64,000 nucleotides of DNA from Knoellia sinensis KCTC 19936 (GTDB lineage: Bacteria; Actinomycetota; Actinomycetes; Actinomycetales; Dermatophilaceae). The DNA lies in contig NZ_AVPJ01000008.1 in NCBI RefSeq assembly GCF_000768705.1, positions 62,001-126,000 on the forward strand, read 5' to 3'. Under the pieces are notes generated by a model. That model saw only the letters and a list, made by a program, of their open reading frames with translations, had not been told where the DNA came from and did no database searches. Positions 20,907 through 37,683 of this stretch are shown here, piece by piece. A program made the translations under genes and the position numbers. Position 1 is the stretch's first letter. Each line of letters opens with the position of its first letter.

Positions 20907-20931
20907 GACTATTGACAGTCTGTCAATAGTC
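20907..20931. promoter_or_regulatory. Perfect TetR-type operator between divergent fatty-acid genes
   Basis: GACTATTGACAG (20907-20918), one central T, then CTGTCAATAGTC (20920-20931): a perfect 12+1+12 palindrome. It lies between the divergent hydratase (start 20891) and aldehyde dehydrogenase (start 20948) genes. CAGGCT at 20935-20940 could serve as the -10 box of the plus-strand gene. The TetR regulator encoded two genes away is the natural ligand. Confidence 0.85.
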
Positions 20932-20947
20932 GAGCAGGCTCTCCGCC

Positions 20948-22537: not shown

Positions 22538-22628
22538 CCTCCCTGCCATCCCGCCTCCCTGCAGTTCCGCGCTCCCTGCCGTTCCGCGCTCCCACTCCCA
22601 CTCCCAACGCACCGAAAAGGCACCCCTC

Positions 22629-24413: not shown

Positions 24414-24450
24414 CGTCCGACCGCTTCGCGGAGAACCACCACCGGGTATG

Positions 24451-24480
24451 CCGGCCGCCCCAGTCCCGGGGTGGCCGGCA
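24451..24480 (+). terminator. Hairpin after fadD
   Basis: GCCGGCC-G-CCCC and GGGG-T-GGCCGGC pair with one bulge, starting about 40 nt after the fadD stop codon. The left arm overlaps a CGGCATAC-type motif (GGTATGCCGG). Confidence 0.65.
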
Positions 24481-24506
24481 CCGTTGCGTCTGGGCCCCGT
24501 ACCAAA

Positions 24507-24925
24507 CCGTCCAATTGGGTGAGTTCGGTACGCACGCGAAACGGACGGCATACCCGCCTGTCCGTGCGGAACCGTCCAATTGGGTGAGTTCGGTACGGCA
24601 GGTGAGCGGACGGCATACCCGCCTGTCCGTGCGGAACCGTCCAATTGGGTGAGTTCGGTACGGCAGGTGAGCGGACGGCATACCCGCCTGTCCGTGCGGA
24701 ACCGTCCAATTGGGTGAGTTCGGTACGGCAGGTGAGCGGACGGCATACCCGCCTGTCCGTGCGGAACCGTCCAATTGGGTGAGTTCGGTACGGCAGGTGA
24801 GCGGACGGCATACCCGCCTGTCCGTGCGGAACCGTCCAATTGGGTGAGTTCGGTACGGCAGGTGAGCGGACGGCATACCCGCCTGTCCGTGCGGAACCGT
24901 CCAATTGGGTGAGTTCGGTACGTTC
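24507..24925. repeat. Seven-copy tandem repeat of 65-bp period
   Basis: The core CCGTCCAATTGGGTGAGTTC recurs at 24507, 24572, 24637, 24702, 24767, 24832 and 24897, exactly 65 bp apart. The middle copies are essentially identical; the first and last diverge at their outer edges. Each full unit also carries a weak dyad (CGGAC...GTCCG) enclosing GGCATAC and ends with GTGCGGAA. Reading frames through it are artificial repeats of one peptide and have no start signal, so it is taken as non-coding. It lies between the convergent fadD and tetR genes. Confidence 0.95.
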
Positions 24926-24952
24926 AGGCGACTTCGCCGTGAAGCCCGGGGG

Positions 24953-25576
24953 TCAGGGGTGGGCGGGGGCGGGGTCGGGGGACGGGACGCCGGTGAGCAT
25001 CGGGGTGAGGAAGCGGCGGGCCACCCGCTCGATGGCGTCGTCGTCCTCACTGTCGAGCACGGCATGCGGCGTGAGGATGAAGGAGTGGGCGAGCCTCACG
25101 ACGATCTCGGCCCGGGCCAGGACATCGTCCTCGTCGACGGCGACCGAACCGTCGCCGCGGAGCAACTCCGCCGCCACGTCGATGGCCGCCAGGAGAATCG
25201 GTGATCCGTTGACCGTGAGCAGCGTCAGGACAGTGTCGGGTTCGAGGGTCATGACCCGCTGGAGCAGCTGGTTGTCCCGCAGACCGCGCATCATCGCGAC
25301 GAACGCGGCGACGACGCGCCCCGCGTCACCCGTGCTCGGGTCGGCAACCGATGCCGCGAGCCGGATGGAGTCGAAAAGTCGGCTCGCATCACGCATGACG
25401 ACCGCCGTGACCAGTTCGTCCTTGGAGCCGATCCGCCGATAGACGGTCACGCGGTCGATTCCGGCCCGCTTGGCGACCTCCCCGACCGAGGCCCGACGGA
25501 TCCCGAGGTCCAGGAAGGCCATGCGGGCTGCATCCAGGAGGGCGTCGTCCTCGTGGGACGTCACGTGTGCGGTCAT
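24953..25576 (-). CDS. TetR-family regulator of the monooxygenase operon
   Basis: A 207-residue TetR protein with a clear HTH (VGEVAKRAGIDRVTVYRRIG, about 31-50). The ligand-binding domain has no motif I can assign. It is transcribed divergently from the five-gene hydrolase/monooxygenase operon, with inverted TGCAACA/TGTTGCA half-sites in the 81-bp gap. It therefore probably represses that operon and itself. In the mycobacterial mymA operon this role is taken by an AraC-type protein (VirS). Confidence 0.88.
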   Translation of the reverse strand: MTAHVTSHEDDALLDAARMAFLDLGIRRASVGEVAKRAGIDRVTVYRRIGSKDELVTAVVMRDASRLFDSIRLAASVADPSTGDAGRVVAAFVAMMRGLRDNQLLQRVMTLEPDTVLTLLTVNGSPILLAAIDVAAELLRGDGSVAVDEDDVLARAEIVVRLAHSFILTPHAVLDSEDDDAIERVARRFLTPMLTGVPSPDPAPAHP

Positions 25577-25595
25577 GAGCTCACTTTACCCTTGA

Positions 25596-25622
25596 TGCAA
25601 CATTGCAACACCAATTGTTGCA
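25596..25622. promoter_or_regulatory. Probable operator: TGCAACA half-sites
   Basis: TGCAACA occurs twice in direct orientation (25596-25602 and 25604-25610), followed after 5 bp by the inverted copy TGTTGCA (25616-25622). The -10-like TACGCT of the plus-strand operon is at 25626-25631, so a bound TetR dimer would cover the promoter. Confidence 0.72.
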
Positions 25623-25657
25623 CTGTACGCTCGGTAGCCAGACGAAAGGAACGGTCA

Positions 25658-26575
25658 ATGACGACCCAGTCCCCCGCCTCAAGAGAGACGTCAGTGGAAG
25701 GCGCGCACACGGCATACGCCGAAGAAGCCCTCGCGATCAGGCCACGCAACGTGAGCTTCGACTGGTCGAGCGTGCCCTTCCACTACGTGCCGACCGACGC
25801 CTACGCGACGCACTTCTGGAACGTCATGCACCTCGTCCTCCCCGAGGGTGAGCGTGCGATGGCCGACGTCCTCGGGCGGGCCCTCGACCAGATCGAGGAC
25901 CCGCGGCTCAAGGAGGAGCTCATCGGCTTCATCGGCCAGGAGGAGACGCACGCGAGTTCGCACGAGTCGTTCCGTCACTACCTCGAGGCGCACGGCGTCG
26001 ACATCCCGCGCGTCACGGGCGTCATGGCCCAGATCATGGACAAGATCTTCGGCGAGCACGACCTCACGGGCCGCGCGGCCGATGCGTGGTTCAAGGAGCG
26101 CCTCGGCCTGTATGCGGCGGCCGAGCACTTCACCGCCGTCGTCGGCGAGTGGCTCATCGACAACGCCGAGTTCGACCGCGTCGGCGTCGACCCGACGATG
26201 CTCGACCTGCTCCGCTGGCACGGCGCGGAGGAGATGGAGCACCGCAACGTCGCGTTCGACGTCTATCAATACGTCGACGGCGGCTACGCCCGGCGCGTCC
26301 GCACCGCGATCGTCGCGAGCGCCGGCCTGCTCACGCTGTGGCTGTGGGCTTCCCGCTTCCTCTATGTCAACGACCCGCGCATCGAGCGCCCGCGCCGCCC
26401 CATGCCGCTCGCCTTCATCCGGTCGGCCCGCCGCGGCCTCATCCCCGGCATCGGCTTCGTGCTGCGCGAGATCCCGCCCTACGTCCGACGCGACTTCCAC
26501 CCGTCGAAGATGGGCCCGATCGACAAGGCCGTGCGCTACCTCGCCAACTCCCCCGCCGCCCGAGACGCCGCATGA
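25658..26575 (+). CDS. Predicted metal-dependent hydrolase, ferritin-like (PF10118 type)
   Basis: A 305-residue protein with two diiron-type clusters: GQEETHASSHESF near residue 90 and EEMEHRNVAFDVYQY near 190. Both are EExxH-like helices characteristic of the family named 'metal-dependent hydrolase'. A hydrophobic stretch (TAIVASAGLLTLWLWASRF) suggests membrane association. The ATG at 25658 has AAAGGA 7 nt upstream. First gene of an operon in which every later start overlaps the previous stop codon. Given the oxidative partners downstream, a diiron oxygenase role is also possible. Confidence 0.82.
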   Translation: MTTQSPASRETSVEGAHTAYAEEALAIRPRNVSFDWSSVPFHYVPTDAYATHFWNVMHLVLPEGERAMADVLGRALDQIEDPRLKEELIGFIGQEETHASSHESFRHYLEAHGVDIPRVTGVMAQIMDKIFGEHDLTGRAADAWFKERLGLYAAAEHFTAVVGEWLIDNAEFDRVGVDPTMLDLLRWHGAEEMEHRNVAFDVYQYVDGGYARRVRTAIVASAGLLTLWLWASRFLYVNDPRIERPRRPMPLAFIRSARRGLIPGIGFVLREIPPYVRRDFHPSKMGPIDKAVRYLANSPAARDAA

Positions 26576-27714
26576 CCACTCCGCGCGGCGCGTCGCTCGC
26601 GGCCTCCCGCACGGTCGCCGCTGCCGCAGCCACCACACCCAGCCGAACGCTGCGGACGCTGGGACGAGCCGCCCACCAGTACCCCCGCGTGGTCACGTCC
26701 GACCGCTGGGCCGCCAAGGTCGACAGGTCCGACCCGCAGCGACGCGACGGCTACGACCTCAGCCTCGTCATCGCGGCCAAGGAGATCGTCGCCGGTGACG
26801 TCGCGGTCTTCACCTTCGCCGCACCCACCGGTGGCGTGCTCCCCGCGTGGAGTCCCGGCGCTCACGTCGACGTCCTGCTCCCCCGCCCCGACGGCTCGAC
26901 CCTCATGCGGCAGTACTCGCTCAACGGCGACCCCGCCGACCGCACCCATTGGCGGATCGCGGTGCGCCGCATCGATCCTGCGGCCGGTGGTGGCGGCGGC
27001 TCGGTCGCGATGCACGCCCTCGAGGTCGGGGACCGCGTGACCCTGCGCGGACCGCGCAACGCCTTCAACTTCGTCAGCGGGACGGCCTACCGTTTCGTCG
27101 CTGGTGGCATCGGGATCACGCCCATCCTTCCGATGGTCCGCGCGGCTGCCGCTGCCGGTGCCGACTGGACCCTTGTGTATGCCGGCCGCTCCCGTTCGTC
27201 GATGCCGTTCGTCGACGAGTTGGTCGCCCTCGACTCGGCCCGGGTGACGATTCACACCGACGACGAGGAGGGCCAGCCCGACACGGCTGCGCTCCTCCAG
27301 GACCTGGGCGACGACACGGCCGTGTATCTCTGCGGGCCGTCGCCGATGATCGACGCCGCCCGCGCGCTCATCCCGCCTCGTGTGCCCGATGCGTCGCTGC
27401 GCGGGGTGTCGTTGCACACCGAGCGCTTCTCGCCGCCGCCTGTCGTCGGCGGGCGGCCGTTCTCCGTGACGTTGGCCCGCACGGGTGCAACCGTCGAGGT
27501 GGCGGCCGACGAGTCGGCGCTGGCCGCGATCCAGCGGGTCCTCCCTGACGTGCGCTACTCGTGCAAGCAGGGTTTCTGCGGGTCGTGCGAAGTGGGTGTC
27601 CTCAAGGGCTCCATCGAACACCGCGGGTCGTCGATGCGTGCCGTCGACGGCGCCGACTCGATGCTCGTGTGCGTCTCCCGCGCGGAGGGCGACGCGTTGG
27701 TCGTGGACTTGTGA
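26572..27714 (+). CDS. Ferredoxin-type oxidoreductase (FMN/FAD, NAD and C-terminal [2Fe-2S])
   Basis: A 380-residue electron-transfer protein of the phthalate dioxygenase reductase type. In order it has a flavin domain with RQYSLNG (the RxYS flavin motif, near residue 118), a nucleotide-binding domain (GGIGITPILPMV; YLCGPSPMID) and a C-terminal plant-type ferredoxin domain with cysteines in CKQGFCGSCEVG and a final Cys in MLVCVSRA. It would pass electrons from NAD(P)H to an oxygenase, probably the first gene product. ATGA overlap with the preceding gene. Confidence 0.92.
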   Translation: MTTPRGASLAASRTVAAAAATTPSRTLRTLGRAAHQYPRVVTSDRWAAKVDRSDPQRRDGYDLSLVIAAKEIVAGDVAVFTFAAPTGGVLPAWSPGAHVDVLLPRPDGSTLMRQYSLNGDPADRTHWRIAVRRIDPAAGGGGGSVAMHALEVGDRVTLRGPRNAFNFVSGTAYRFVAGGIGITPILPMVRAAAAAGADWTLVYAGRSRSSMPFVDELVALDSARVTIHTDDEEGQPDTAALLQDLGDDTAVYLCGPSPMIDAARALIPPRVPDASLRGVSLHTERFSPPPVVGGRPFSVTLARTGATVEVAADESALAAIQRVLPDVRYSCKQGFCGSCEVGVLKGSIEHRGSSMRAVDGADSMLVCVSRAEGDALVVDL

Positions 27715-29291
27715 GCGAGACGACGAGGAGCATTGCACCACAACGCTCCTCGACTCCGCGGCCGCTGCCCGATCACGTCCGCGTCGCCGTCATCGGCGCC
27801 GGCTTCGGTGGCCTCGGGGCAGCGATTCGGCTTCGTCAGGAGGGCCACGACGACTTCGTCGTCCTCGAGAAGGGTGACGACGTTGGCGGCACCTGGTGGT
27901 GGAACACCTATCCGGGCGCACAGTGCGACATCCCGTCGGTCCTCTACTCCTTCTCCTTCGCGCCCAAGCCGGACTGGAGTCGTCTCTACCCGCTGCAGGA
28001 GGAGCTCCAGTCCTACCTCCACGAGTGCGTCGAGCGGTTCGGAGTCGGGGACCACCTCCACCTCCGCACCGAGATGCTCGACGCGGCGTGGGACGAGAAC
28101 TCACAGGTCTGGCGCATCGAGACGAGCCGCGGGTCCCTCACGGCGTCGGTTCTGGTCGCCGCCACCGGACCCTTCTCCGAGGCGTCCATTCCGGACCTGC
28201 CGGGGATCGACACTTTCCAGGGCGAGGCCTTCCACTCCATGCACTGGCGGCACGACCTCGACCTCGAAGGGAAGCGGATCGGCGTCATCGGCACGGGGGC
28301 CTCTGCGGTCCAGTTCATCCCCCAACTGCAGCCGCTGGCTGATCGACTCACCGTGTTCCAGCGGACTGCGACGTGGATCCTCCCTCACCCGGACCGTCCC
28401 GTACCGCCGCGAGCGCAGCGCCTCTTCGCCCGGTGGGGCGCTCCGCAGCGCGCCATGCGCCTCGGGTGGGAGCTGGTCCAGGAGGCGATGGTCCCGGGCT
28501 TCGTGTGGTGGCCGCCGTTGCAGAAGGGCCTCGAGCTGACCGCTCGCTGGCACCTGCGCCGACAGGTCGCCGACCGAGACCTGCGCGCACAGCTTCGTCC
28601 CGGATACGCCGTCGGGTGCAAGCGACCGACCTTCTCCAACTCGTACTACCCCGCATTGGCGTCCGAGAACGTCACCGTCACCGGCTCGGGGATCGACCGG
28701 GTCACGACCCACGGCATCGTCACGGCCGACGGCACCTTGCACGAGCTCGACGTCATCGTCTATGGCACCGGCTTCCGGATCACGGGCAACTCGGGCTTCG
28801 CCCGCCTGCGCGGTCGTGACGGTCGGACTCTCGCGGAGCATTGGGCGGGCGGTGAGCCCCGCACCGATCTCGGCACGGCGGTCACCGGCTTCCCCAACAT
28901 GCTCATGCTCCTCGGCCCGAACTCGGTGACCTACACCTCTCAGGTCGTCACCATCGAGGCCCAGGTCGAGTACCTCCTCGAGACCCTGCGCGTCCTCGAC
29001 CAGCACGACCTCGCCAGCCTCGAGGTGACGACGAGCGCGCAGGCGTCCTTCGTCGAGTGGATCTCGCGCGGCTTGGCGCGCTCGGTGTGGAACACCGGCG
29101 GGTGCGCCAGCTACTACCTCAGCCCGACCGGCTTCAACTTCACGTTCTGGCCGGGCTTCGCCCGCGGCTTCAAGCGCCGGATGCAGCGCGTCGAGCTGGC
29201 CGACCACGCCGTCGTCGAGGCGCGTGCCGTTCCCGGCGCCCTGAGCCCCACTGCAACCCGCGCGACCGTCGAAAGGCTGGCCCACCGATGA
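27711..29291 (+). CDS. Baeyer-Villiger-type flavin monooxygenase (MymA/EthA-like)
   Basis: FAD- and NADPH-dependent monooxygenase of 526 residues. It shows the FAD Rossmann motif VIGAGFGGLGAAIRLRQ, GGTWWWNTYPGAQCD, the BVMO fingerprint FQGEAFHSMHW (FxGxxxHxxxW) and a second dinucleotide motif IGVIGTGASAVQ. Such enzymes insert oxygen next to ketones or oxygenate sulfur; the substrate is unknown. GTG at 27711 overlaps the previous stop codon (GTGA). Neighbouring SDR and esterase genes suggest an alcohol-ketone-ester-hydrolysis sequence. Confidence 0.92.
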   Translation: MSETTRSIAPQRSSTPRPLPDHVRVAVIGAGFGGLGAAIRLRQEGHDDFVVLEKGDDVGGTWWWNTYPGAQCDIPSVLYSFSFAPKPDWSRLYPLQEELQSYLHECVERFGVGDHLHLRTEMLDAAWDENSQVWRIETSRGSLTASVLVAATGPFSEASIPDLPGIDTFQGEAFHSMHWRHDLDLEGKRIGVIGTGASAVQFIPQLQPLADRLTVFQRTATWILPHPDRPVPPRAQRLFARWGAPQRAMRLGWELVQEAMVPGFVWWPPLQKGLELTARWHLRRQVADRDLRAQLRPGYAVGCKRPTFSNSYYPALASENVTVTGSGIDRVTTHGIVTADGTLHELDVIVYGTGFRITGNSGFARLRGRDGRTLAEHWAGGEPRTDLGTAVTGFPNMLMLLGPNSVTYTSQVVTIEAQVEYLLETLRVLDQHDLASLEVTTSAQASFVEWISRGLARSVWNTGGCASYYLSPTGFNFTFWPGFARGFKRRMQRVELADHAVVEARAVPGALSPTATRATVERLAHR

Positions 29292-30169
29292 GCCGTCACA
29301 CCCTGGCCGATCGCCACGCCCTCGTCACGGGCGCTGGCCGTGGCATCGGCGCGGCTGTCGCGACCGAACTCGTGCGCCGCGGCGCCCAGGTCGCCGTGGT
29401 CGACCGGGATCCCGACGCGGTGGCCGACACCGTCGCGGCGCTCGGCCCCCACGCCACAGGACTCGTCGCCGACGTGCGCGACCGGGACGCCATGGCCGAG
29501 GCCGTGACCGAGGCGCAGCGTCGACTCGGCGGACTCGACACCGTGATCGCCAACGCCGGCATCACGCCGCCACCGGCGAGCGTGCGGACCATCGACCCCG
29601 ACGACTTCCAGCGGGTGCTCGACGTCAACATCACCGGCGTCTTCAACACCGTCCGTCCGGCGCTCGACAGCGTCATCGCCAGCGGCGGGCACGTGCACCT
29701 GGTCGCGTCGGCGGCTTCGTTCGCGCCCGGCGTCGGTGGCGCGGCCTACATGATGAGCAAGGCCGCGGTGGAACAGTTCGGCCGAGCCCTGCGCCTCGAG
29801 CTCGCAGGTCAGGGCGCCACCGTTGGCACGACCTACTTCGGCGTCGTCGACACCGACATGGCGCGCGAGACGCTCGTCGACAACCCCCTCGGCCCGCGCA
29901 TCAACGGACTGCTCAAGTGGCCGCTCAGCCAGCAGATCACGGCCGAACACGCGGCCCGAGTCCTTGTCGATGCCGTGGCCCGCCGGAAGCCTCGATCCAT
30001 CACCCCCTGGGGATGGGCGCCCTATGCGGCCCTGCGCGGTCTGGTGAACCCGGTCATCGACGCGTCCCTCAGCCGGTCCAGGACCATCCACGAACTCCTC
30101 CGTGACGTCGAGCAGCAAAACGTCGAGCTCAACGCGTCCCGCCGATCCGCGCAACCGGATCCGCGATGA
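29288..30169 (+). CDS. Short-chain dehydrogenase/reductase (SadH-like)
   Basis: NAD(P)-dependent oxidoreductase of 293 residues. TGAGRGIG cofactor motif near residue 15, NAG (VIANAGI) and the catalytic Ser/Tyr/Lys (VASAAS; AAYMMSKAA). A C-terminal extension of about 60 residues beyond the core (GLLKWPLSQQITAEHAARVL) is typical of the mycobacterial SadH group. It likely oxidises the secondary alcohol whose ketone feeds the monooxygenase. ATGA overlap upstream and downstream. Confidence 0.9.
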   Translation: MSRHTLADRHALVTGAGRGIGAAVATELVRRGAQVAVVDRDPDAVADTVAALGPHATGLVADVRDRDAMAEAVTEAQRRLGGLDTVIANAGITPPPASVRTIDPDDFQRVLDVNITGVFNTVRPALDSVIASGGHVHLVASAASFAPGVGGAAYMMSKAAVEQFGRALRLELAGQGATVGTTYFGVVDTDMARETLVDNPLGPRINGLLKWPLSQQITAEHAARVLVDAVARRKPRSITPWGWAPYAALRGLVNPVIDASLSRSRTIHELLRDVEQQNVELNASRRSAQPDPR

Positions 30170-31749
30170 CACACCCGCAGCCGAGCCGTCGGGCCCGCGC
30201 GCTCTATCGGGCCGCACCACGCGTGCTGCGGCCGACGCTACAGCGGACTCGGCCCTCCGGAGTCCCCCTCGCAGTGCTGCGCGGCGCGTTCGACGGCCTG
30301 GGCCGGGTCCTCACCTCGCCGCACGTGGGAGCCGAACCCGGCACGGGGTACGAGCCCGTCGACACCTTCGGCCCCGAGGGTGAGACCGTCCGTGGCGAAT
30401 GGGTCGTCGCTCCCTCGGCCCAAGACCGTGACCCCCGCGACGGCGTCATCGTCTGGTTCCACGGTGGCGGCTACCTCCTCTCCTCACCCGGCAACGCACG
30501 CGCGGTGACGTCGACGCTCAGCCAGCTGGCCGGCATACCCGTGTTCGCGGTGGACTATCGCCGAGCACCGGAGAACCCCTACCCGGCAGCGTTCGACGAC
30601 GCCCTCGCGGTGAGCCGCTGGATGGGCCGGGCGGGTGTCGCGATGGATCGCGTTGTCCTTGCGGGCGATTCGGCTGGTGCGCACCTCGCGCTGTCACTCG
30701 CCATCCACCTCGCGGCCCGCGGCGAGGAGACCCCCGCCGCCCTTGCGCTGCACTCTCCCGTGCTTGATCCGCTGGGGTCGCCCGCTGATTCCCGTATGCC
30801 GTCCGCCCGCCCGCCGCTCTTGGCCCAGGACCCGCTCATGCCACCGGAGTTCGCGCGTCGAGCAGCGATCTCGTTCCTCGACGGCATCGCGGCCGACGAC
30901 CCACGAATCGCCGTGCTGAACGCTCCGGACGACGTGATCGCCGCCCTTCCGCCCGTCCTGACGATGGTGGGCGAGACCGAACTGTTCCGCACGGACGCTG
31001 AACGTCTCCGCGACCGCTTGACCGACGCCCAGGTCGCCAACGACCTGCACGTCGTGCCAGGGGTCGTGCACAGCTGGATCACCTACGGGCGGGCCATGCC
31101 GGAGAGCCTTCACGCCATCGAGGTGACGGTTGCCTTCACCCGGACCCATCTCGGACGTCCGCACGTCGATGGCCCGGACGCGCTGGGCGCCGGCGCCACC
31201 CGCTCGACCTCCCCCACTCCACGCACCCTGACTCCCCGATCGGAGACCTACGTGAGCCGCTGGCACAACCTTGAGCCCGTCGACGACGAGTTCCTCCTGT
31301 CCGCCCCCGTGAGGATCGTCCACACCCTCGACACCAACGCTTCCGTCGACGAGTTGTGGGCGGCGCTCGAGGCCGACGACGCGATCGTCTCGTGGAGCCC
31401 CGTCGTGACCGGCTCGGACTGGCCTCGGCCCCACGGCATCGGGTCCGTGCGCACGGTGACGATCGGCGGCATCGCCACCGTCCGCGAGCGCTTCTACCGG
31501 TGGGACGAGAAGGAGCGCATGACCTTCGGCGTCGCCCAGACGAGCGTGCCTGGGATTCGGCGCATGGGTGAGGACTACGTCGTCACCGAGACCGCCAGCG
31601 GCTCGCGCCTGGTGTGGACGGTGGCGATCGAGCCGTCGCGGCTTCCCGGTCCGGCCACGGGTCTCGTCGTCGCTGGTCTGCGCACAGCCGTGGGGCAGCT
31701 CGCCGCCGGCCTCGAGCGCCGACTGCGCGCCTCAGAGCGAGCGTTCTAA
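30166..31749 (+). CDS. Esterase (HSL-type alpha/beta hydrolase) fused to SRPBCC domain
   Basis: A 527-residue two-domain protein. The N-terminal half (1-325) is a hormone-sensitive-lipase-type esterase with oxyanion-hole HGGGYLLS, nucleophile GDSAGAH and the acid/His region VVPGVVHSWITYG. After a Ser/Thr/Pro linker (about 340-362) a START/SRPBCC-like domain (370-515) follows, with IVHTLDTNASVDELWAAL. The two parts are usually separate genes. An internal in-frame GTG at about 31253 preceded by GGAG could also yield the C-terminal domain alone. As the last gene of the operon, it would hydrolyse the ester made by the monooxygenase. Confidence 0.87.
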   Translation: MTHPQPSRRARALYRAAPRVLRPTLQRTRPSGVPLAVLRGAFDGLGRVLTSPHVGAEPGTGYEPVDTFGPEGETVRGEWVVAPSAQDRDPRDGVIVWFHGGGYLLSSPGNARAVTSTLSQLAGIPVFAVDYRRAPENPYPAAFDDALAVSRWMGRAGVAMDRVVLAGDSAGAHLALSLAIHLAARGEETPAALALHSPVLDPLGSPADSRMPSARPPLLAQDPLMPPEFARRAAISFLDGIAADDPRIAVLNAPDDVIAALPPVLTMVGETELFRTDAERLRDRLTDAQVANDLHVVPGVVHSWITYGRAMPESLHAIEVTVAFTRTHLGRPHVDGPDALGAGATRSTSPTPRTLTPRSETYVSRWHNLEPVDDEFLLSAPVRIVHTLDTNASVDELWAALEADDAIVSWSPVVTGSDWPRPHGIGSVRTVTIGGIATVRERFYRWDEKERMTFGVAQTSVPGIRRMGEDYVVTETASGSRLVWTVAIEPSRLPGPATGLVVAGLRTAVGQLAAGLERRLRASERAF

Positions 31750-32002
31750 CTGTCGGCTTCGCTCCAAGTGTCGGGGATCGTGTGCGTCAGCAGGGAGCGA
31801 CTTTGAGACGAACTCCGGCCGATTCGCTGGATTCTGAGACGCGCTCAACGGAGGAGTCTGGGCCCAGCCGTCCTGCCCAGTCCGTCTGAGGCGAGTGGGC
31901 AATTCCGCCCAGACAACGCTCCGGGGGGCCAGGGCAGTCTCACGCACATGCCGATGTCCGCTCGTTCCCCCAGGGCGAAAGGTCCGCTGCGATACTGCGC
32001 AG
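31750..32002. other. Gap between the monooxygenase operon and the accessory island
   Basis: About 250 bp without a supported gene. It contains a weak hairpin (TGGGC-AATTC-CGCCCA near 31888) and, at its right edge, the GATACT -10 box of the next gene. It marks the change from conserved metabolic genes to small unassigned cassettes. Confidence 0.4.
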
Positions 32003-32455
32003 GTGATGGAGCAACCAGAGGATCAATTTCTCAATCGCCACCCTGAATACGCCGTCGCCCTGATGTGTCTTATGGCCCTGGCGTTCGGTTTCTTGCTCGT
32101 CAGGACGGTCCACTGGCGCAGAGACCGCGAGGCTTACGTTAAGCAGGCCGGACGGCTGCAGGCGATGAGCATTTATCATCCATCCCAGGCATACGCCCGT
32201 GGGTTGGTAGCGCTGGGATGGCCGATCTACGTCGGCTTCCTCCTGATTTTCGGGCTTGGGCTGTGGGACAACCTGTTTCACAGGAGCTTCGACGGGGCAG
32301 GCTGGATTCTGGTCGCGTCAATTGTCTCCATCTGGGCGGGCCTGATCCTCCCGTACTTCTACTGGCCACGAGTGGCCATGCCGCCCCACGCACGAGGAGA
32401 CATGTCGCCGTTCCAGGTTCGCAGATTGCGTCGTCAGAGGAAACGCGGGCACTGA
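32003..32455 (+). CDS. Small membrane protein of unknown function
   Basis: A 150-residue protein I do not recognise. It has three probable TM helices: AVALMCLMALAFGFLLV, PIYVGFLLIFGLGLW and GWILVASIVSIWAGLILPYF, with a basic C-terminus (QVRRLRRQRKRGH). GATACT lies 6 nt upstream of the GTG at 32003, suggesting a leaderless start (ATG at 32006 is equally possible). Codon choice includes more A/T-ending codons than the flanking metabolic genes, as for others in this island. Confidence 0.65.
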   Translation: MMEQPEDQFLNRHPEYAVALMCLMALAFGFLLVRTVHWRRDREAYVKQAGRLQAMSIYHPSQAYARGLVALGWPIYVGFLLIFGLGLWDNLFHRSFDGAGWILVASIVSIWAGLILPYFYWPRVAMPPHARGDMSPFQVRRLRRQRKRGH

Positions 32456-32521
32456 GAACAGGCTCCGGCACACGGCTCTCGGGCAGCGGATCGGACGACG
32501 ATGCGTCCTAAATTGCTGCTC

Positions 32522-32986
32522 TCAGCGCGCGTCAGTTTGTAGTGCGGCGGCTGCAGCCTCGAGCGTTGAACCGCCGTGTCTCTGCGTTTCCAGCGAGCCA
32601 GCGACCACCTCCGCCACGCACTCCTTTAACGGCGCGATGTAGTGGTCGAGGAAGTCAAAGCGTCGCTGGTCGTGTGATGGATGGACAGAGTTCTGAACGG
32701 TCAACGCACGAATGCGGGAGCTCCTCTCAACCAAGCCGAGCCATCGGACATCGCTCAGGCCGGAGTGCCAAAGCGGGTGGCCACTAATCGATTCGTCATT
32801 AGGCGCGGTTAGGGCGGCAAACTCGACGCGTCGCCAGAAGAGGACGAGCGGGCGCTGGTCGGCGTCGTCGGGGTGAGCGCGCACAGCGAGCGTCGTTCGA
32901 CCCGAGTCATCACTCACCATCACCGCCTCCGGGACGTTGGGTTCCCACTGGACTCGGATGCCGCTCTCAACCACACGCTCGCCCAT
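32522..32986 (-). CDS. Unassigned small protein of the immunity-like cassette run
   Basis: A 154-residue soluble protein with no family I recognise. It is Trp- and Arg-rich in the centre (PLVLFWRRVEFAALTAP; DVRWLGLVERSSRIRALTVQ) and ends in a helical tail. TAGATT is 7 nt upstream of the ATG, so it has its own leaderless promoter. Its setting among short, separately promoted, mixed-strand genes suggests an immunity- or antitoxin-type cassette, which is an inference. Confidence 0.6.
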   Translation of the reverse strand: MGERVVESGIRVQWEPNVPEAVMVSDDSGRTTLAVRAHPDDADQRPLVLFWRRVEFAALTAPNDESISGHPLWHSGLSDVRWLGLVERSSRIRALTVQNSVHPSHDQRRFDFLDHYIAPLKECVAEVVAGSLETQRHGGSTLEAAAAALQTDAR

Positions 32987-33054
32987 GCTGATGAATCTAG
33001 CCAGAGCGTCGCCGATCCGCCCTCTTCTGCCGCGATGGGCGCGCTCCTACTCGA

Positions 33055-33391
33055 TCAGCGATCCCAGAGAAAGCCGCTGTCCGGAACGAGACCGCTTCGG
33101 ATGAAGGTGATCAGTTCGTCCACCGCGACGTCGAGATCCTCGACTTCGCAGCGCGTAGACCTTCTCCATTCGACGATCGTCTGCCAGCCGAATGACTCCA
33201 CCGTCCGCCTCGCCGCTCACCCAGACAACAAGGTCGCCGATATGGGTCGGGCTCTCGAAGGTGATGTGCGACGCCGGCTTCGGGGTCTGCGTCGCTTCCG
33301 AAGGCTCGCCGCACACGACCCCGAGGTCCGCCCAGTCAGGAGCTCGGGCAGCGAACGCAGGCCCAAGCTGCGCGAGGTCGTAAGCGGTCAC
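33055..33391 (-). pseudogene. Frameshifted immunity-like gene
   Basis: The first part reads well in one frame from the GTG at 33391 (PASHITFESPTHIGDLVVWVSGEAD), a pattern like small Imm-type proteins. Past about 33215 that frame degenerates into Arg/Ser-rich sequence to a stop at 33047. Another frame there gives a plausible ending: TVESFGWQTIVEWRRS, then CEVEDLDVAVDELITFI and SGLVPDSGFLWDR with a stop at 33055. A 1-nt indel between about 33140 and 33215 would join them to give roughly 110 residues. It may be a real lesion or a sequencing error. GACACT 6 nt upstream supports the start. Confidence 0.68.
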
Positions 33392-33465
33392 GGGTCCAGT
33401 GTCACCGAATCCGTGCTGTCATGCCGCACCTCGCGCGTGATGACGGGTCGGACTAGCCTCGATCT

Positions 33466-33747
33466 GTGTCCGCCAAGTCCGACCGTCAAGTTGCGCGCGA
33501 GGTCGTCGGGGCCTATCACGAGGGCCAGTTGGCTGCGTTGGTGGATCGAGTGGGCGGCGCGATAGACGACTTCCGGGAAGGCCAGCTGGATGCCTTCGGG
33601 GTCGACCATCTTCTGTTCCAGTACTCTCGCGCGGCGAAGGAACTGTGGAAGTTCTGCAACCTCGGCACTCCAGAGATCAGAGCCAGGATCATCCGGGATC
33701 AGCCAGCCGTGGATTGGTGGGAACGCGGAGTTCCAAGGAGACGTTGA
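33466..33747 (+). CDS. Small unassigned helical protein
   Basis: A 93-residue protein, mostly alpha-helical (EVVGAYHEGQLAALVDRVGG; FGVDHLLFQYSRAAKELWKF). I recall similar actinobacterial hypothetical proteins but no function. TAGCCT is 6 nt upstream of the GTG at 33466, a textbook leaderless start. It is a single-gene unit in the cassette run. Confidence 0.65.
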   Translation: MSAKSDRQVAREVVGAYHEGQLAALVDRVGGAIDDFREGQLDAFGVDHLLFQYSRAAKELWKFCNLGTPEIRARIIRDQPAVDWWERGVPRRR

Positions 33748-33858
33748 CGCCCAGCGCGAACGGCCTCGAATCGGCCCGCTCATGATCGCAGATCGCGGAT
33801 GCCGATTTGCGGGTCAGCGGACAGAGGTCGCGCTCCTCGGCCGGACTAGAGTCCCGGC

Positions 33859-34185
33859 ATGCCCCTGACGCTCGACAACATCGAAGGGGAGTTTCTCAGG
33901 AGATTCCCAGATGTGGCCGCCGCCGTCCGAGAGGACGCTGGCATGGACCCAGCCGGCCGGGTGGACTGGGTGCTTCGCCACTACGTCATGCCCAATGCCA
34001 TCGACAACCGCGATGCGCTACGCGAGGTCTTCGATTGGATCGAGCGATTGATGCAGTCCCAGGACCCCCTCGTGGAGTACTGGCGGGACGTGCGCCTCCT
34101 TGGCCGCACCCTTGCTTCGCCGGAGTGGACAGCGATCGCTGAGGCATATGAGGGCCCGTTGCTGGCAGGTCACTGGGGACGCTAG
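33859..34185 (+). CDS. Small unassigned acidic protein, immunity-like
   Basis: A 108-residue acidic helical protein (DNIEGEFLRRFPDVAAAVRE; IERLMQSQDPLVEYWRDVRL). Size and composition resemble polymorphic-toxin immunity proteins, but no specific family is recognised. TAGAGT sits 6 nt upstream of the ATG. It is followed by the motif CGCATCTGCCGCTGAT shared with the next cassette. Confidence 0.62.
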   Translation: MPLTLDNIEGEFLRRFPDVAAAVREDAGMDPAGRVDWVLRHYVMPNAIDNRDALREVFDWIERLMQSQDPLVEYWRDVRLLGRTLASPEWTAIAEAYEGPLLAGHWGR

Positions 34186-34252
34186 GCGCGGCGATCCAGT
34201 CGCACGCATCTGCCGCTGATCGGGTGAGATGCCATCGTGCAACTATTGCGCG

Positions 34253-34729
34253 GTGAGCGATGGGTCCCTGAGCGTCTATCGGAGATCGGACGGCTACTAC
34301 CTGGTCGCCTCGGCGCAGACCACCGCGGGAGTCTGGCTGGACGTCGCTGAGCCGCCGGGGCTGCTGAGCAGGGCTGCCGATGCGGCGCAACTGGGAGGTG
34401 AGGTGTTGGATCGCCTGACCCAGCGCCGGCCGACCGTCCTCCACCCGCGGCCTGAGGAATGGGCAGAGGTGACCCGAGGCGGCGTCACCCCGGTCGTGAC
34501 GGCAGCCAAGGTTCGCAGCTGGCGAGCGTTCGTCACGACGGCCACGCTGGTCGTTGTGGACCGGGCCAACCAGACGTTTTCGGTCTCCCCGATGAAGGCG
34601 CTGCCCAAGCCGCGGGGGGCGTTTGAGCCGGTCCTCGACAACGAGACAAAATTGCGGTCTCCCTCGGCGGAGAGCCTTGGAGGTGCGATCCTCCAGGCAT
34701 TCGATGCGGTCGAGCACACGCACAAGTAG
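34253..34729 (+). CDS. Unassigned protein, possible immunity protein
   Basis: A 158-residue soluble alpha/beta protein (LSVYRRSDGYYLVASAQTTA; WRAFVTTATLVVVDRANQTF) without an assignable family. The layout (N-terminal beta strands, central helix AADAAQLGGEVLDRL, C-terminal strands) is compatible with Imm- or CdiI-type proteins. GTG at 34253 was chosen; AACTAT 6 nt upstream is a possible -10 box. An earlier ATG at 34229 cannot be excluded. Confidence 0.6.
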   Translation: MSDGSLSVYRRSDGYYLVASAQTTAGVWLDVAEPPGLLSRAADAAQLGGEVLDRLTQRRPTVLHPRPEEWAEVTRGGVTPVVTAAKVRSWRAFVTTATLVVVDRANQTFSVSPMKALPKPRGAFEPVLDNETKLRSPSAESLGGAILQAFDAVEHTHK

Positions 34730-34772
34730 CGTCCGCATCTGCCGCTGATTGAGTGGTTCGATCACCCTGCCG

Positions 34773-35111
34773 CTAGTCGAGATTCCGGTAGCGCCACCAG
34801 CCGGCTCCTTCCGGCGCGAAAGGGGATGGCGTGGTTGCCTGCCGGAACCTCTCATCCAGCGCCTGAACGCGCTTGGAGATGCGCGCGCCGCGCCTCCCTC
34901 CGCGAAGGATCAGGGCCTCGAGTTGATCGCGCGCGTCGAGCCCGTCCTCACCGTCGCATTGTGGGCAGCCCGTGACGTGTGCGGCGATTCCCGCCTCAGC
35001 ACGCCTGACGATGCGTTCCCAGTCGCGCAGAAGGCCCGCGGTCCAGAGTCCGTTGGTGTTCCTGGCGGCACGGGGTCGGCTAGGTACGCCGCGTGAATCA
35101 GATCGAGTCAT
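34773..35111 (-). CDS. Unassigned small protein with a CPxC pair
   Basis: A 112-residue basic protein containing AHVTGCPQCDGEDG, a single zinc-knuckle-like cysteine pair, between helical segments (LLRDWERIVRRAEAGIAAHV; RDQLEALILRGGRRGARISK). It ends with an aromatic tail (GAGWWRYRNLD). Family not recognised. Start ATG at 35111; the promoter signal is weak. Confidence 0.5.
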   Translation of the reverse strand: MTRSDSRGVPSRPRAARNTNGLWTAGLLRDWERIVRRAEAGIAAHVTGCPQCDGEDGLDARDQLEALILRGGRRGARISKRVQALDERFRQATTPSPFAPEGAGWWRYRNLD

Positions 35112-35242
35112 GTCGAGCGCCGTATCGTGGCGCGATCCCGGTGAGGTTCGAACAGGTTAGATCCGCTCAGACGGGAGCGCTACGCCAAACGCCCGCATCT
35201 GCCGCGATCCGTTCCTTTGCCGATGAGCGGGCGAGCCAGCCC

Positions 35243-35545
35243 TCACCTCTCGGGGCAGAACCGAAGAGCGACCCTTACACGGTCGCCCACCTGCATCCGC
35301 TCCACGAGGGCGAGCATCTCTGCCCGCTCGTCGGGGGCGAGCGGCTGCTCGTCCTCGCTCAGCACGTCCGCCATCTGTTCGAGGGCGAGCCCGAGTTCGT
35401 TTGCGTCGATGGACTCGGCGATCAGAGTGATGTCTTTCCCCGGGAGCCGATCGTCCAGGCGGACGAGAAGGCCGTGCAGTTGCCCGGCGATCTCCTCGTA
35501 GTACGCACGATCCACCCGGTGATAGTGCCAGACCAAACGACTCAC
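35243..35545 (-). CDS. MafI-family-like immunity protein
   Basis: A 100-residue acidic protein. The core, RLPGKDITLIAESIDANELG then ALEQMADVLSEDEQPLAP and a C-terminal helix EMLALVERMQVGDRVRV, matches the pattern of MafI-type immunity proteins, in which a short Glu-rich helix ('id..E..lAL..ladwl.E...pl') is diagnostic. MafI neutralises secreted MafB-type polymorphic toxins. No toxin gene is visible nearby, so this would be an orphan immunity gene. It lies 18 nt downstream of the next gene and is probably co-transcribed with it. Confidence 0.65.
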   Translation of the reverse strand: MSRLVWHYHRVDRAYYEEIAGQLHGLLVRLDDRLPGKDITLIAESIDANELGLALEQMADVLSEDEQPLAPDERAEMLALVERMQVGDRVRVALRFCPER

Positions 35546-35563
35546 AGGCCGCGTTCCGCGTGG

Positions 35564-36070
35564 TCATGGCGATGAGCCGTCGCGGCTCCACCTGAGCGCG
35601 ACATGGCTTCGCACGGTGTCACGCATTTCCTGCTCGACCGCAGCGCGTGCCTGTGGTGTGGTCTCGTGATCCCTCCGGTCCAGCATCGTGACCAGTGCCC
35701 GGTCCAACGGCCCTTGGTCGTTCCACGTCGGGATCTGAACGTAGAAGAGTCCCTCGAAGTTGTGGAGGGGCAGGCCCAGATAGCCGAAGGCCCGCAGGAG
35801 GACCTGATACTCGTTCTGCTCGTCATCGGGTTGTGGCACGTCGATGCCGTGCTCTGCGAGCATCTCGCGGACGGGCTGCTCAGCATCGCTGACCCAGGAA
35901 TCACGGGCCAGCGTGGCGACCGCGACCGTACCTGCTCCTTCCACACCTGAGGCCACCATGTCCTCGGCGAGCCCCACGGCCATGTCCACGTCCAGCCCCG
36001 TCGGCAGAATGAAGTCAACCGCCACTCGGTGGAGGCGATCCTCGAAGGCGGTGGTCGCGTTGGCGCTCAC
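35564..36070 (-). CDS. Unassigned acidic protein upstream of the MafI-like gene
   Basis: A 168-residue acidic, mainly helical protein (GLDVDMAVGLAEDMVASGVE; ALVTMLDRRDHETTPQARAA). I do not recognise the family. GTG at 36070 has CAGGAT 6 nt upstream. Co-oriented with the MafI-like gene, it may be another immunity protein or part of the same response unit (inference). Confidence 0.62.
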   Translation of the reverse strand: MSANATTAFEDRLHRVAVDFILPTGLDVDMAVGLAEDMVASGVEGAGTVAVATLARDSWVSDAEQPVREMLAEHGIDVPQPDDEQNEYQVLLRAFGYLGLPLHNFEGLFYVQIPTWNDQGPLDRALVTMLDRRDHETTPQARAAVEQEMRDTVRSHVALRWSRDGSSP

Positions 36071-36164
36071 AGCGGGATCCTGTCATCCGAACGCACTCAT
36101 TAGCCTCGATCCGCATCGTGCCGATGAGAGCGCGCTCCCAGCGTGCTGACTACTCTTCGCAGAC

Positions 36165-36380
36165 ATGACGGCGACTCAGTGCCCACGGTGCGGTCAGGGC
36201 TCAGTCCAGCGGCACGTCTTCAAGGCAACAGGGAAATACATCCGGGTCTGTGACGAGTGTGAGGCTGTCTGGCCCGACGATGGAGTCCTCGATCCACATG
36301 GCTTCGAGGACTTCGAAGCGTTCGCGAGCCAGCGAGGCGGCGCTGGAAGGTGGGACGAGTTGTCCCCGGCCAAGCACTGA
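36165..36380 (+). CDS. Small zinc-ribbon protein
   Basis: A 71-residue protein with two CxxC knuckles, CPRCG (residues 6-10) and CDECEAVW (29-36), that should bind one zinc ion. The rest is acidic (PDDGVLDPHGFEDFEAFA). TACTCT lies 8 nt upstream of the ATG. Small zinc-ribbon proteins of this type often travel with immunity cassettes; function unknown. Confidence 0.7.
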   Translation: MTATQCPRCGQGSVQRHVFKATGKYIRVCDECEAVWPDDGVLDPHGFEDFEAFASQRGGAGRWDELSPAKH

Positions 36381-36839
36381 CCCAACGTCCGATCATGCCG
36401 CGTTGAGCGTTCAGTTCGCCGATCGTGGAGTGCGTCGACCGCGCAGCCCTGGTGGGCCGTGGCCTCGGCCGGGCGCTGGTCGACGACCTGGTGGGCTGTC
36501 CGCGCCCGCTGGGACGGCTGGCCATCCGGCGTGCGTCGTGGCTCGGCCGCGGCGTCTGGCAGACGGCCTGTTCCACAGCCGTTGCTGACCGTGCCTGAAC
36601 CCGCGAGGAGCTCGGCGGCTCGACGAGCGCGATGGCACATCGAAGTTCTGGTCGAGCGCGAGATCCTGGTGCCGCACGGCCAGAAGCGCGCAACGCGACC
36701 CACCGGGCACTGGGACGTGTGATGCGTGTGCTGGACCGGGCCTGACGGCGGTTGAGGACGTGGCTGACTATCCACGAAAAACGCAACAATCGTGCTTACG
36801 AATTGTGTTTTTGGTGTTTGGAGTGAGACACTGGTCGAC
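36381..36839. other. Gene-poor stretch with possible remnants and an AT-rich promoter dyad
   Basis: No convincing gene. Reading frames here are open but show no family, and fragments such as GRGLGRALVDDL are too short to identify. At 36777-36812 an AT-rich imperfect dyad (AAAACGCAACAAT...AATTGTGTTTT) precedes the HTH gene and looks like its operator. The rest could be decayed mobile or island DNA. Confidence 0.45.
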
Positions 36840-37355
36840 ATGTCGCCCATGACTGACACCCGCACCGAGCAGTTGCTCACCACCGGTGAAGCGGCCAAGC
36901 TCTTGGGTTCGTCGCGCCAGCACGTGGTCAACCTGTGCGAGTCGGGCGACCTGCCGTTCCTGACCGTCGGCAAGCACCGCCGCCTGCGCCGCGAGGATGT
37001 GGAGGAGGCGCGAGCGCGCACTACCCGCTCGAACCGCGCGGATCGGCGCAGTCGATGGCTGAACATCGCGGTCGCGGGCGAGCTCGTGCGAGACCCGGAC
37101 GCCGTGCTGGAGCGCGCACGCACGAACCTCGCGCTGCTCCAGAGCCGGCACCCCCGAGGCCGTGGCGCGATGTGGCTGAGCGAGTGGGAGAAGCTGCTCA
37201 ACGGCCCGATCGAGGACGTCCTCGACGTGCTCACCTCGCAGACCCCGCGGTCGCGCGAGCTACGTGCGAACTCTCCATTCGCAGGTGTGCTAAGCAGCGA
37301 GGCGCGCGAGCAGGCGCTGCTCGCGTTCCAGACCCACCGGCACTCCCGGGTCTGA
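36840..37355 (+). CDS. Excisionase-type HTH protein, likely antitoxin of a nucleotidyltransferase pair
   Basis: A 171-residue protein with an N-terminal HTH_17/excisionase-fold domain (TTGEAAKLLGSSRQHVVNLC, then FLTVGKHRRLRREDV) and a helical C-terminal domain (SEWEKLLNGPIEDVLDVLTS). This arrangement matches HTH proteins encoded immediately before AbiEii/DUF6036-type nucleotidyltransferase toxins. GACACT is 7 nt upstream of the ATG, and an AT-rich dyad upstream suggests autoregulation. Its TGA overlaps the next ATG (TGATG). Confidence 0.75.
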   Translation: MSPMTDTRTEQLLTTGEAAKLLGSSRQHVVNLCESGDLPFLTVGKHRRLRREDVEEARARTTRSNRADRRSRWLNIAVAGELVRDPDAVLERARTNLALLQSRHPRGRGAMWLSEWEKLLNGPIEDVLDVLTSQTPRSRELRANSPFAGVLSSEAREQALLAFQTHRHSRV

Positions 37356-37639
37356 TGAAGCGCGATCAGCTGGCCCACATCCTGCGCGCTGCGGCTCGCA
37401 TCGCCAACGACGACGAGGTCATCGTGATCGGCAGCCAGGCGATCCTGGGGTCGTTCGACGAGGACGACCTGCCCGAGCCGGCCTACTTCTTCCTCAACAC
37501 GTGGGGTGTCGGCGGCATCGCCAGCTGCCAGCCCCTCGCCCACGTCATCGGTGGCCCGGCGAGCGATCCGCGTGCCGCTGCACGCCACGCCGTCGACATC
37601 GTCCTCGACGGGATGCGCACACCCCACACCACCGCCTGA
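37355..37639 (+). pseudogene. Chimeric remnant: nucleotidyltransferase N-terminus joined to a TetR-like C-terminus
   Basis: The first 41 or so residues (KRDQLAHILRAAARIANDDE, then EVIVIGSQAILGSFDED) match the N-terminus of DUF6036/AbiEii-type nucleotidyltransferases. The expected catalytic continuation (a D-x-D segment) is missing. From about 37480 the frame continues into a sequence ending RAAARHAVDIVLDGMR, which resembles the last helix of TetR regulators. The 94-residue product thus looks like a deletion junction, leaving the HTH antitoxin without a complete toxin and a TetR gene without its DNA-binding part. A hairpin at 37642-37660 follows. Confidence 0.65.
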
Positions 37640-37641
37640 CT

Positions 37642-37660
37642 CTGGGCTGATCCAGCCCAG
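37642..37660 (+). terminator. Short hairpin before the LytTR gene
   Basis: CTGGGCT (37642-37648), GATCC loop, AGCCCAG (37654-37660). It sits just after the truncated gene and 11 nt before the LytTR -10 box. Confidence 0.5.
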
Positions 37661-37683
37661 CATCGGTGGTTATCCTCGACCTC

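What the first reader, a model, noticed from the sequence alone, without database searches (positions are those of the whole stretch)
32003..36380. Run of single-gene, mixed-strand cassettes resembling an immunity array
Nine short genes (71-168 residues; one frameshifted), many with their own leaderless promoter, include a MafI-like immunity gene, a zinc ribbon and several small acidic proteins. No toxin gene is present. This fits a collection of orphan immunity genes, possibly guarding against toxins of neighbours, acquired one by one.
Basis: partly seen in the sequence, partly recalled or inferred. Interest (0 to 1): 0.62.

Follow-up and report, generated by a model that had tools for sequence, protein, structure and literature searches.

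The report
Integron-like gene cassette array in actinobacteria
This stretch is a row of ten small genes with a copy of one short DNA site at each boundary; in related bacteria the same site and the same kinds of genes sit around a DNA-recombining enzyme, which points to an unrecognised actinobacterial counterpart of integrons, the gene-collecting platforms known from other bacteria.

Summary
The row of single-gene, mixed-strand cassettes is real: ten small ORFs at 32003-36380. Of 69 loci found with one site pattern, 26 of 35 actinobacterial ones hold a second site, against 0 of 34 from other phyla. In Nocardioides currus site orientation flips around a Xer-like tyrosine recombinase; relatives of it lie near such sites in other actinobacteria, one in the window's own genus. 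Single cassettes recur between species with similarity ending at sites (37 of 124 alignment ends, 8.0 expected). The recombinase is not IntI and the sites do not fold like attC. The window's genome shows no such recombinase at E<=1e-40, so this array resembles an integrase-less cluster. The 'immunity array' reading is only partly supported: one gene is MafI-family; cargo of related arrays is mixed. Recombination is inferred, not shown.

The parts
31937..31964 (-). site S1, left of g1 (first-core form, ...GGACATCGGCATGTGCG...)
   Evidence: PWM1 score 20.2, P<0.001 against resampled sequence
32003..32455 (+). g1, 150 aa, hydrophobic stretches, basic; no family
32502..32529 (-). site S2, worn (g1/g2)
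   Evidence: weakest site: score -1.4, P=0.07
32522..32986 (-). g2, 154 aa, no family
   Evidence: no plasmid relative
33018..33045 (-). site S3 (g2/g3), GCGGCAGAAGAGGGCG
   Evidence: PWM2 16.3, P<0.001
33047..33391 (-). g3, frame broken; weak relative beside a site in a Nocardioides array (L054, 36% over 59 aa)
33410..33437 (-). site S4 (g3/g4), TGCGGCATGACAGCACGG form
   Evidence: P=0.046
33466..33747 (+). g4, 93 aa; 58-64% identical relatives in Nocardioides loci, several beside sites, one on a Microbacterium plasmid (56%); beside the recombinase gene in G405 and G558
33788..33815 (-). site S5 (g4/g5), AATCGGCATCCGCG
   Evidence: PWM1 10.1, P=0.009
33859..34185 (+). g5, 108 aa, acidic, perhaps all-helical; weak DUF7674 hit below cut-off
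   Evidence: low-confidence model, pLDDT 63
34201..34228 (-). site S6 (g5/g6), GCGGCAGATGCGTGCG
   Evidence: PWM2 23.7, P<0.001
34229..34729 (+). g6, 166 aa, orphan in the genomes searched
   Evidence: 1 of 198 genomes, its own
34730..34757 (-). site S7 (g6/g7), GCGGCAGATGCGGACG
   Evidence: PWM2 22.7, P<0.001
34773..35111 (-). g7, 112 aa, basic, no family
35190..35231 (-). site S8 (g7/g8), full double-core site: CCCGCTCATCGGCA..GGATCGCGGCAGATGCGGGCG
   Evidence: PWM2 27.7, P<0.001
35243..35545 (-). g8, 100 aa, MafI-family immunity protein; 78% identical relative inside a site-bounded array in G012
35555..35582 (-). site S9, worn, g8/g9 boundary
   Evidence: PWM1 17.2
35564..36070 (-). g9, 168 aa, acidic, near-orphan
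36107..36134 (-). site S10 (g9/g10); 36088-36134 is 87% identical to the site 0.5 kb from the recombinase gene of same-genus genome G006
   Evidence: PWM1 11.5, P=0.002; blastn
36165..36380 (+). g10, 71 aa, zinc-ribbon-like
36386..36413 (-). site S11, right end: CAACGCGGCATGATCGGACG
   Evidence: PWM2 6.1, P=0.015
14530..37666 (.). 23-kb segment absent from 6 of 8 same-genus relatives, where the histidine kinase gene (ends 14527) adjoins the response-regulator gene; the array is at its right end

Best explanation
The region is a recombinase-dependent array of single-gene cassettes: an integron-like system of Actinobacteria that is neither IntI/attC nor rAID. Each cassette is one small gene, in either orientation and probably with its own promoter, plus a recombination site. 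The site holds one or two copies of a short core: CGGCA flanked by imperfect inverted arms of about 10 bp. A 308-aa Xer-like tyrosine recombinase, encoded in the platform of other genomes, is inferred to pair sites of the same orientation and so insert, excise and shuffle cassettes one at a time, which keeps the sites of an array on one strand. Tandem 32-34-bp site repeats would be empty cassettes or slippage products. The window's array has no recombinase gene beside it and several of its sites are worn, so it is probably a stranded, inactive or trans-served array delivered with the island it sits in. Shown: sites, common orientation, association with one recombinase subfamily, single-cassette matches ending at sites. 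Inferred: that this recombinase acts on these sites, and the route between genomes.
For: Window: best score on the minus strand at all ten boundaries tested, P<=0.05 at nine of ten, and a worn site at g8/g9. Class-wide pattern counts in 246 genomes, outliers picked by eye: forward/reverse 29/1 in G012, 24/1 in G230, 0/8 in G331, against 1/8, 6/6 and 4/3 for the reversed control. G012 has 27 site clusters on one strand over 19.5 kb. In 35 actinobacterial loci 82 of 88 neighbouring sites share a strand; 26 of 35 have a second site against 0 of 34 loci of other phyla; 25 of 35 against 0 of 34 with a PWM trained on G012 alone at threshold 12 (1 of 34 at threshold 10). 107 intervals of up to 2.2 kb between same-strand sites: median 607 bp, one ORF in 75, two in 21, three in 3, none in 8. 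Recombinase gene where site orientation flips in N. currus; same subfamily with sites nearby in two Kribbella loci, Nocardioides G405 and G558, G230 (flagged first by sites alone), G252 and same-genus G006. Of ten loci taken from the recombinase search without regard to sites, 7 have a site (score >=11) within 5 kb and 4 within 1 kb. Catalytic R, HxxR, H and Y kept in a 13-sequence alignment. Single-cassette matches with both ends at sites in both loci: L238/L136 86%, L054/L190 85%, L054/L178 90%. A g4 cassette on a Microbacterium plasmid is 85.8% identical over 365 bp to one in N. currus.
Against: No recombination was observed. The window's genome has no recombinase of this subfamily at E<=1e-40 (5 of 20 first-look candidates scored), and the G012 arrays have no Phage_integrase match within 40 kb. 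The pattern count of the window's own genome (0/4, control 3/1) is not unusual by itself, and some other genomes have skewed counts without follow-up (for example G212 9/0, control 4/12). Three of ten recombinase-found loci have no PWM site within 5 kb (L227, L233, L237); L237 and L231 have repeats with the same TGCCG core but other arms, so site and recombinase would have to co-diverge. The recombinase genes of L127, L227 and L228 look broken. 87 of 124 alignment ends are not near a detected site; each alignment was counted from both loci and g4-type cassettes make up many of them. Because sites are alike, alignments tend to extend to them. The PWM was trained on many of the loci it is tested on, except.
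Confidence: 0.82

Rival explanations
1. Orphan-immunity island: the selected function of the row is protection against toxins of neighbours, as in rAID of Bacteroidales; the sites are only the means of acquisition.
For: g8 is MafI-family; an OmdA (bacteriocin-protection by name) gene lies next to the g8 relative in G012; several acidic small proteins.
Against: MafI in 2 of 131 cassette proteins; the families shown for the rest are mixed enzymes and regulators, and many have none; two PADLOC families with one member each of 131; no toxin family among nine neighbours of four g8 relatives.
Confidence: 0.12
2. The intergenic repeats are regulatory or REP-like sequences (promoter, terminator or protein-binding sites) and the genes gathered by ordinary homologous or illegitimate recombination in a hot spot.
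For: Short GC-rich repeats with partial dyad symmetry occur in tandem; a window site ends directly before the g6 start codon.
Against: Same strand along an array although gene orientation is random (82 of 88 pairs; 57 same against 69 opposite), which a regulatory element would not give; association with one recombinase subfamily; single-gene alignment ends at sites; no excess folding.
Confidence: 0.1
3. A canonical integron remnant (a CALIN: attC cluster without integrase).
For: Same logic: single-gene cassettes, same-strand sites, a tyrosine recombinase in relatives. Tandem copies read CCTCAAC (reverse GTTGAGG) before GCGGCA, one base from the integron box RYYYAAC/GTTRRRY (motif recalled).
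Against: Recombinase 51-56 bits against the IntI model (cut-off 265); five sites fold no better than shuffles (z -1.56 to 0.17); gene orientation random; [quoted passage not shown]
Confidence: 0.03

Closest known systems
Chromosomal integrons / CALIN (IntI, attI, attC)
   Same: Array of mostly single-gene cassettes between recombination sites on one strand; tyrosine recombinase in a platform; sometimes arrays without recombinase; diverse small unknown cargo.
   Different: Recombinase not IntI by NCBIfam; site short and without excess single-strand folding; its consensus lacks the GTTRRRY box (recalled), though tandem copies come within one base of it; cassette genes point either way; hosts are Actinobacteria.
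rAID (recombinase-associated acquired interbacterial defence) islands of Bacteroidales
   Same: Predicted tyrosine recombinase, arrays of short genes, conserved intergenic motifs (definition from passages of PMC12247911); some immunity-like cargo.
   Different: rAID genes are co-oriented and predicted orphan immunity genes in Bacteroidales; here genes lie in both orientations, cargo is mixed, the phylum differs. The two recombinases and motifs were not compared.
Arm-less phage integrases (Brujita type) and the Y-integrases of Arthrobacter and Gordonia phages
   Same: Short tyrosine recombinase; the best Arthrobacter phage integrases listed are 45-47% identical to the N. currus enzyme.
   Different: Those integrate whole phages; here the inferred substrates are many short sites. 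Brujita's integrase itself was not compared; its properties come from passages of PMC7194413.
MafI immunity family (NF033691), for g8
   Same: Score above cut-off.
   Different: No mafB-like or other toxin family found beside it in the row or among nine neighbours of four relatives.

Membership tests
Integron | IntI integrase | tested here: not met
   TIGR02249 53.6, 51.3 and 55.7 bits for three recombinases of related platforms, cut-off 265; XerD model 113-121, cut-off 329.6. None of the subfamily in the window's genome at E<=1e-40.
Integron | attC sites that fold as single strands | tested here: not met
   Eight folds of five sites: z -1.56 to 0.17; one of the five (L101:8346-8396) is in the best tenth of its shuffles. 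No attC covariance model was run; Rfam gave nothing relevant.
Integron | Single-gene cassettes between same-strand sites | tested here: met
Integron | Cassette genes mostly co-oriented (recalled) | tested here: not met
   57 same, 69 opposite of 126 ORFs.
Integron | Recombination at attI/attC shown | not testable with these tools
   Needs experiment.
rAID | Predicted tyrosine recombinase beside the array | tested here: inconclusive
   Present in related arrays, none found in the window's array.
rAID | Co-oriented short genes | tested here: not met
   Five genes each way in the window; random in 126 ORFs.
rAID | Conserved intergenic motifs | tested here: met
   (a motif is present; not compared with the rAID motif).
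rAID | Genes homologous to toxin-linked immunity genes | tested here: inconclusive
   Only g8 by family; no toxin family among nine neighbours of four g8 relatives.
MafI family (g8) | NCBIfam NF033691 score over cut-off | tested here: met
   37.5 against 31.
MafI family (g8) | Encoded beside MafB toxin | tested here: not met
   No such family in the row.

The most novel reading that the evidence does not exclude
An independently evolved gene-capture system of Actinobacteria: a Xer-like, phage-integrase-related tyrosine recombinase collects promoter-bearing single-gene cassettes in either orientation through short double-stranded TGCCG-cored sites, whose arms co-diverge with the recombinase lineage. 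It would fill in Actinobacteria the role that integrons play elsewhere and move cassettes between orders and onto plasmids.
Probability: 0.65. Interest if true: 0.92.

Novelty: new variant of a known kind. Interest (0 to 1): 0.83.

Why it matters
[quoted passage not shown] A cassette system with another recombinase and another site would show that cassette banking arose more than once, would explain rows of orphan small genes in high-GC genomes, and gives a sequence tag with which cassettes (immunity, defence and unknown genes) can be mined. The short site and the phage-like recombinase also make a simple system to test and perhaps use as a tool.

Tried and rejected
Immunity array as the main reading: rejected as unsupported beyond g8. 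tRNA-linked island: no tRNA in the window. Known RNA element: Rfam gave only a weak sR32 match below its threshold. Canonical attC: no excess folding. Tyrosine recombinase near the G012 arrays: no Phage_integrase match within 40 kb. Viral-contig copies: 1, 0 and 0 hits in three IMG/VR scans; the single hit (L124) has no second-core PWM site. A faecal 'Bacteriophage sp.' scaffold with a 93% identical recombinase piece looks chimeric: GC 53%, truncated gene, no PWM sites; not used. Recombinases of 39-48% identity as a negative control: 1 of 8 loci with a site, but these may be the same system with diverged sites, so the control is soft. A core-permutation test gave clusters of four or more TGCCG-centred repeats in 10 of 22 recombinase loci against 1-8 for nine other cores; suggestive only, as TCGGC reached 8. 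Structures of g9 (pLDDT 42) and g5 (63): too poor to search. g9 in genome contigs: 118 pattern stretches, none a relative; g2, g8, g9 in plasmids: no match.

Dropped before counts: L149 (same contig as L054) from the alignment-end test; recombinase-overlapping alignments and those under 180 bp or 70% identity from the same test; 8 of its 70 alignments whose locus had fewer than two sites. Intervals over 2.2 kb and between opposite-strand sites from the interval count. The window's five automatically called ORFs were replaced by the ten curated ones in the family census. An earlier count said 7 of 8 relatives lack the 23-kb segment; one search shows 6 of 8.
Full report
Observation. The stretch 32003-36380 holds ten ORFs of 71-168 codons, five on each strand, at 60-68% GC next to 70% GC DNA on the left. 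One (g3) is broken. g8 is the only one above a curated family cut-off: MafI, 37.5 against 31 bits. The row lies at the right end of a 23-kb segment (14530-37666): in 6 of 8 same-genus genomes the flanking histidine kinase and response regulator genes are neighbours. The other genes scanned in that segment are mostly oxidoreductases, CoA ligases and hydrolases.

The missed feature. Three boundaries share GCGGCAGATGCG on one strand. A g8 relative (78%) in G012 (same order) lies between copies of the same element, four of them in tandem 32-bp repeats. In 246 genomes of the class, counts of GCGGCAGATNCGGGCG (one mismatch) are mostly near the reversed-pattern control; the outliers I followed, picked by eye, are G012 (29 forward, 1 reverse), G230 (24, 1) and G331 (0, 8); the window's own genome has 0 and 4, control 3 and 1. 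The G012 copies form clusters, the largest with 27 site clusters over 19.5 kb, all on one strand.

Anatomy of the site. Full sites read CGTCCGCTCATCGGCA, then 14-18 bases, then GCGGCAGATCCGGACG: two cores with CGGCA 22-26 bp apart, each with imperfect inverted arms. Tandem forms are single cores every 32-34 bp. A 28-position PWM built from 123 sequences of related loci, not the window, finds 4 sites at score >=8 in the 64-kb window, all in the array and on the minus strand. With a second PWM for the first core, the best score is on the minus strand at all ten boundaries tested and reaches P<=0.05 against resampled sequence (uncorrected) at nine; g1/g2 is P=0.07. A worn site also separates g8 and g9. 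The second PWM is less specific: at score >=10 it also hits 495, 2621 and five units of a tandem repeat at 24.6 kb.

Distribution. One exact-match pattern over the genome-contig collection gave 69 loci, which I sorted by record title: 35 actinobacterial (22 of them Nocardioides, 17 labels) and 34 other. A second, separate site occurs in 26 of 35 and 0 of 34; neighbouring sites share a strand in 82 of 88 pairs. With a PWM trained on G012 alone the figures are 25 of 35 and 0 of 34 at threshold 12 (1 of 34 at threshold 10).

Recombinase. In N. currus (L133) sites at 432-1474 are on the plus strand and those at 3162-5972 on the minus strand; between them is a 308-aa tyrosine recombinase gene (2165-3091, minus) with Pfam Phage_integrase 81 bits. 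Two further minus-strand sites lie at 154 and 413, so the left arm is not uniform. A class-wide search (394 genomes) gave 31 genomes with E<=1e-40, ten of them at 54% identity or more; further relatives lie in two Kribbella loci and in G006 of the window's own genus. G230, flagged first by its sites alone, has its recombinase gene 1.4 kb from the nearest site listed and 170 bp from the nearest PWM site. In the ten loci taken from the recombinase search without regard to sites (L227-L231, L233-L237; L229's locus had earlier been met through g4) a site of score >=11 lies within 5 kb in 7 and within 1 kb in 4; in eight loci with 39-48% identical enzymes, 1 of 8. The genes in L127, L227 and L228 look broken. 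In G006 the enzyme (70%) has a site 0.5 kb away that is 87% identical over 47 bp to window 36088-36134; this platform is about 9 kb beyond the region matching window 40.4 kb. In an alignment of 13 enzymes H250, R253, H276 and Y285 are invariant and R160 nearly so. The window's genome has no match at E<=1e-40; three of its eleven Phage_integrase matches were compared and are 32-42% identical.

Cassettes recur singly. In blastn between array loci of different genomes, alignments outside the recombinase end within 40 bp of a site in 37 of 124 cases, 8.0 expected by random placement. Each alignment is counted from both loci and g4-type cassettes are over-represented. The clearest pairs have both ends at sites in both loci: L238:4087-4389 with L136 (86%), L054:1743-2087 with L190 (85%), L054:2068-3339 with L178 (90%). 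A g4 cassette on a Microbacterium plasmid is 85.8% identical over 365 bp to one in N. currus. Sites are alike, so alignments can extend into them, and 87 of 124 ends are not explained by a detected site.

Cargo and orientation. In 23 loci, 107 intervals of up to 2.2 kb between same-strand sites have a median of 607 bp; ORFs per interval are 0 (8), 1 (75), 2 (21), 3 (3); 57 ORFs point with the site and 69 against it; median 120 aa (ORFs from my own GC-frame caller). Families in 131 proteins: Glyoxalase 3, GNAT 2, AAA_33 2, ECF sigma 2, RTX repeats 2 (also the NCBIfam RTX hemolysin model), HAD, NUDIX, OmdA, DUF4279, an IS110-type transposase and others, MafI 2; the listing shows the first 25 of 63 Pfam and of 391 NCBIfam families.

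How it most likely works (inferred). A Xer-like recombinase joins short duplex sites in the same orientation. Intermolecular events between an array and an excised cassette circle would insert a cassette with its site; intramolecular events would excise it. Because the site and not the gene sets orientation, sites stay on one strand while genes, with their own promoters, can lie either way. The N. currus recombinase is 45-47% identical to the best Arthrobacter phage integrases. For the Brujita integrase, an actinobacteriophage enzyme not compared here, a paper describes no arm-type sites and no directionality factor (passages of PMC7194413): a plausible ancestry for such a system. Other recombinase loci have repeats with the same TGCCG core but different arms: about 17 tandem 34-bp copies in G247, eight dispersed ones in G466.

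Comparison with the known. Integrons: same logic, but enzyme and site fail the tests and genes are not co-oriented. rAID: shares recombinase, short genes and intergenic motifs, but rAID genes are co-oriented, immunity-centred and in Bacteroidales (passages of PMC12247911). I file it under neither; it is a new variant of recombinase-built gene-cassette arrays. Not-in-print check: in the listings of paper searches (the top 3 to 25 titles each) and of the site-word search 124 (4 papers, unrelated by title) I saw no description of it; subscription papers and preprints outside the library were not seen.

Verdict. The cassette array is real and of high interest; an immunity function is unproven for nine of the ten genes and rests on family membership for g8; the recombination step is the decisive untested link.

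Noticed in passing
window 24505-24922: 6.4 near-perfect tandem copies of a 65-bp unit between an AMP-ligase gene and a minus-strand ORF; each full copy holds TACGGCAGGTGAGCGGACGG, and five score 12.6 with the first-core PWM. May be an unrelated repeat.
   Followed up: partly
window 36792-37640: HTH_17 gene followed by a short ORF that looks like a truncated nucleotidyltransferase running into what resembles a TetR C-terminal remnant (both names recalled, not tested): a mosaic junction just before the conserved response regulator.
   Followed up: no
window 40553-47356: Low-GC stretch (56-62%) with an Eco57I-type DNA methyltransferase ORF of 970 codons, probably a restriction-modification island. 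In G006 the recombinase platform occupies the corresponding interval.
   Followed up: no
L229/L053 (G405) and L228 (G558): A g4-family gene lies directly beside the recombinase gene in two Nocardioides genomes (82-85% DNA identity over both genes), whereas g4 is a plain cassette elsewhere; it might be an accessory gene of the platform.
   Followed up: partly
L232 (G230) 11832-12410 and L231 (G247) 14808-15399: About 17-18 head-to-tail copies of a 34-bp site unit within a few kb of the recombinase gene, CRISPR-like in regularity but without spacers: empty cassettes or slippage?
   Followed up: partly
L248 (MT837522.1): Unverified faecal 'Bacteriophage sp.' scaffold ends in a truncated recombinase gene 93% identical to that of Nocardioides currus; probably a chimeric assembly.
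   Followed up: yes
window 14530-37666: A 23-kb segment with mostly metabolic genes (FadB-like, aldehyde dehydrogenase, AMP-ligase, FMO-like, SDR, alpha/beta hydrolase) splits a histidine-kinase/response-regulator pair that is adjacent in six of eight relatives.
   Followed up: partly
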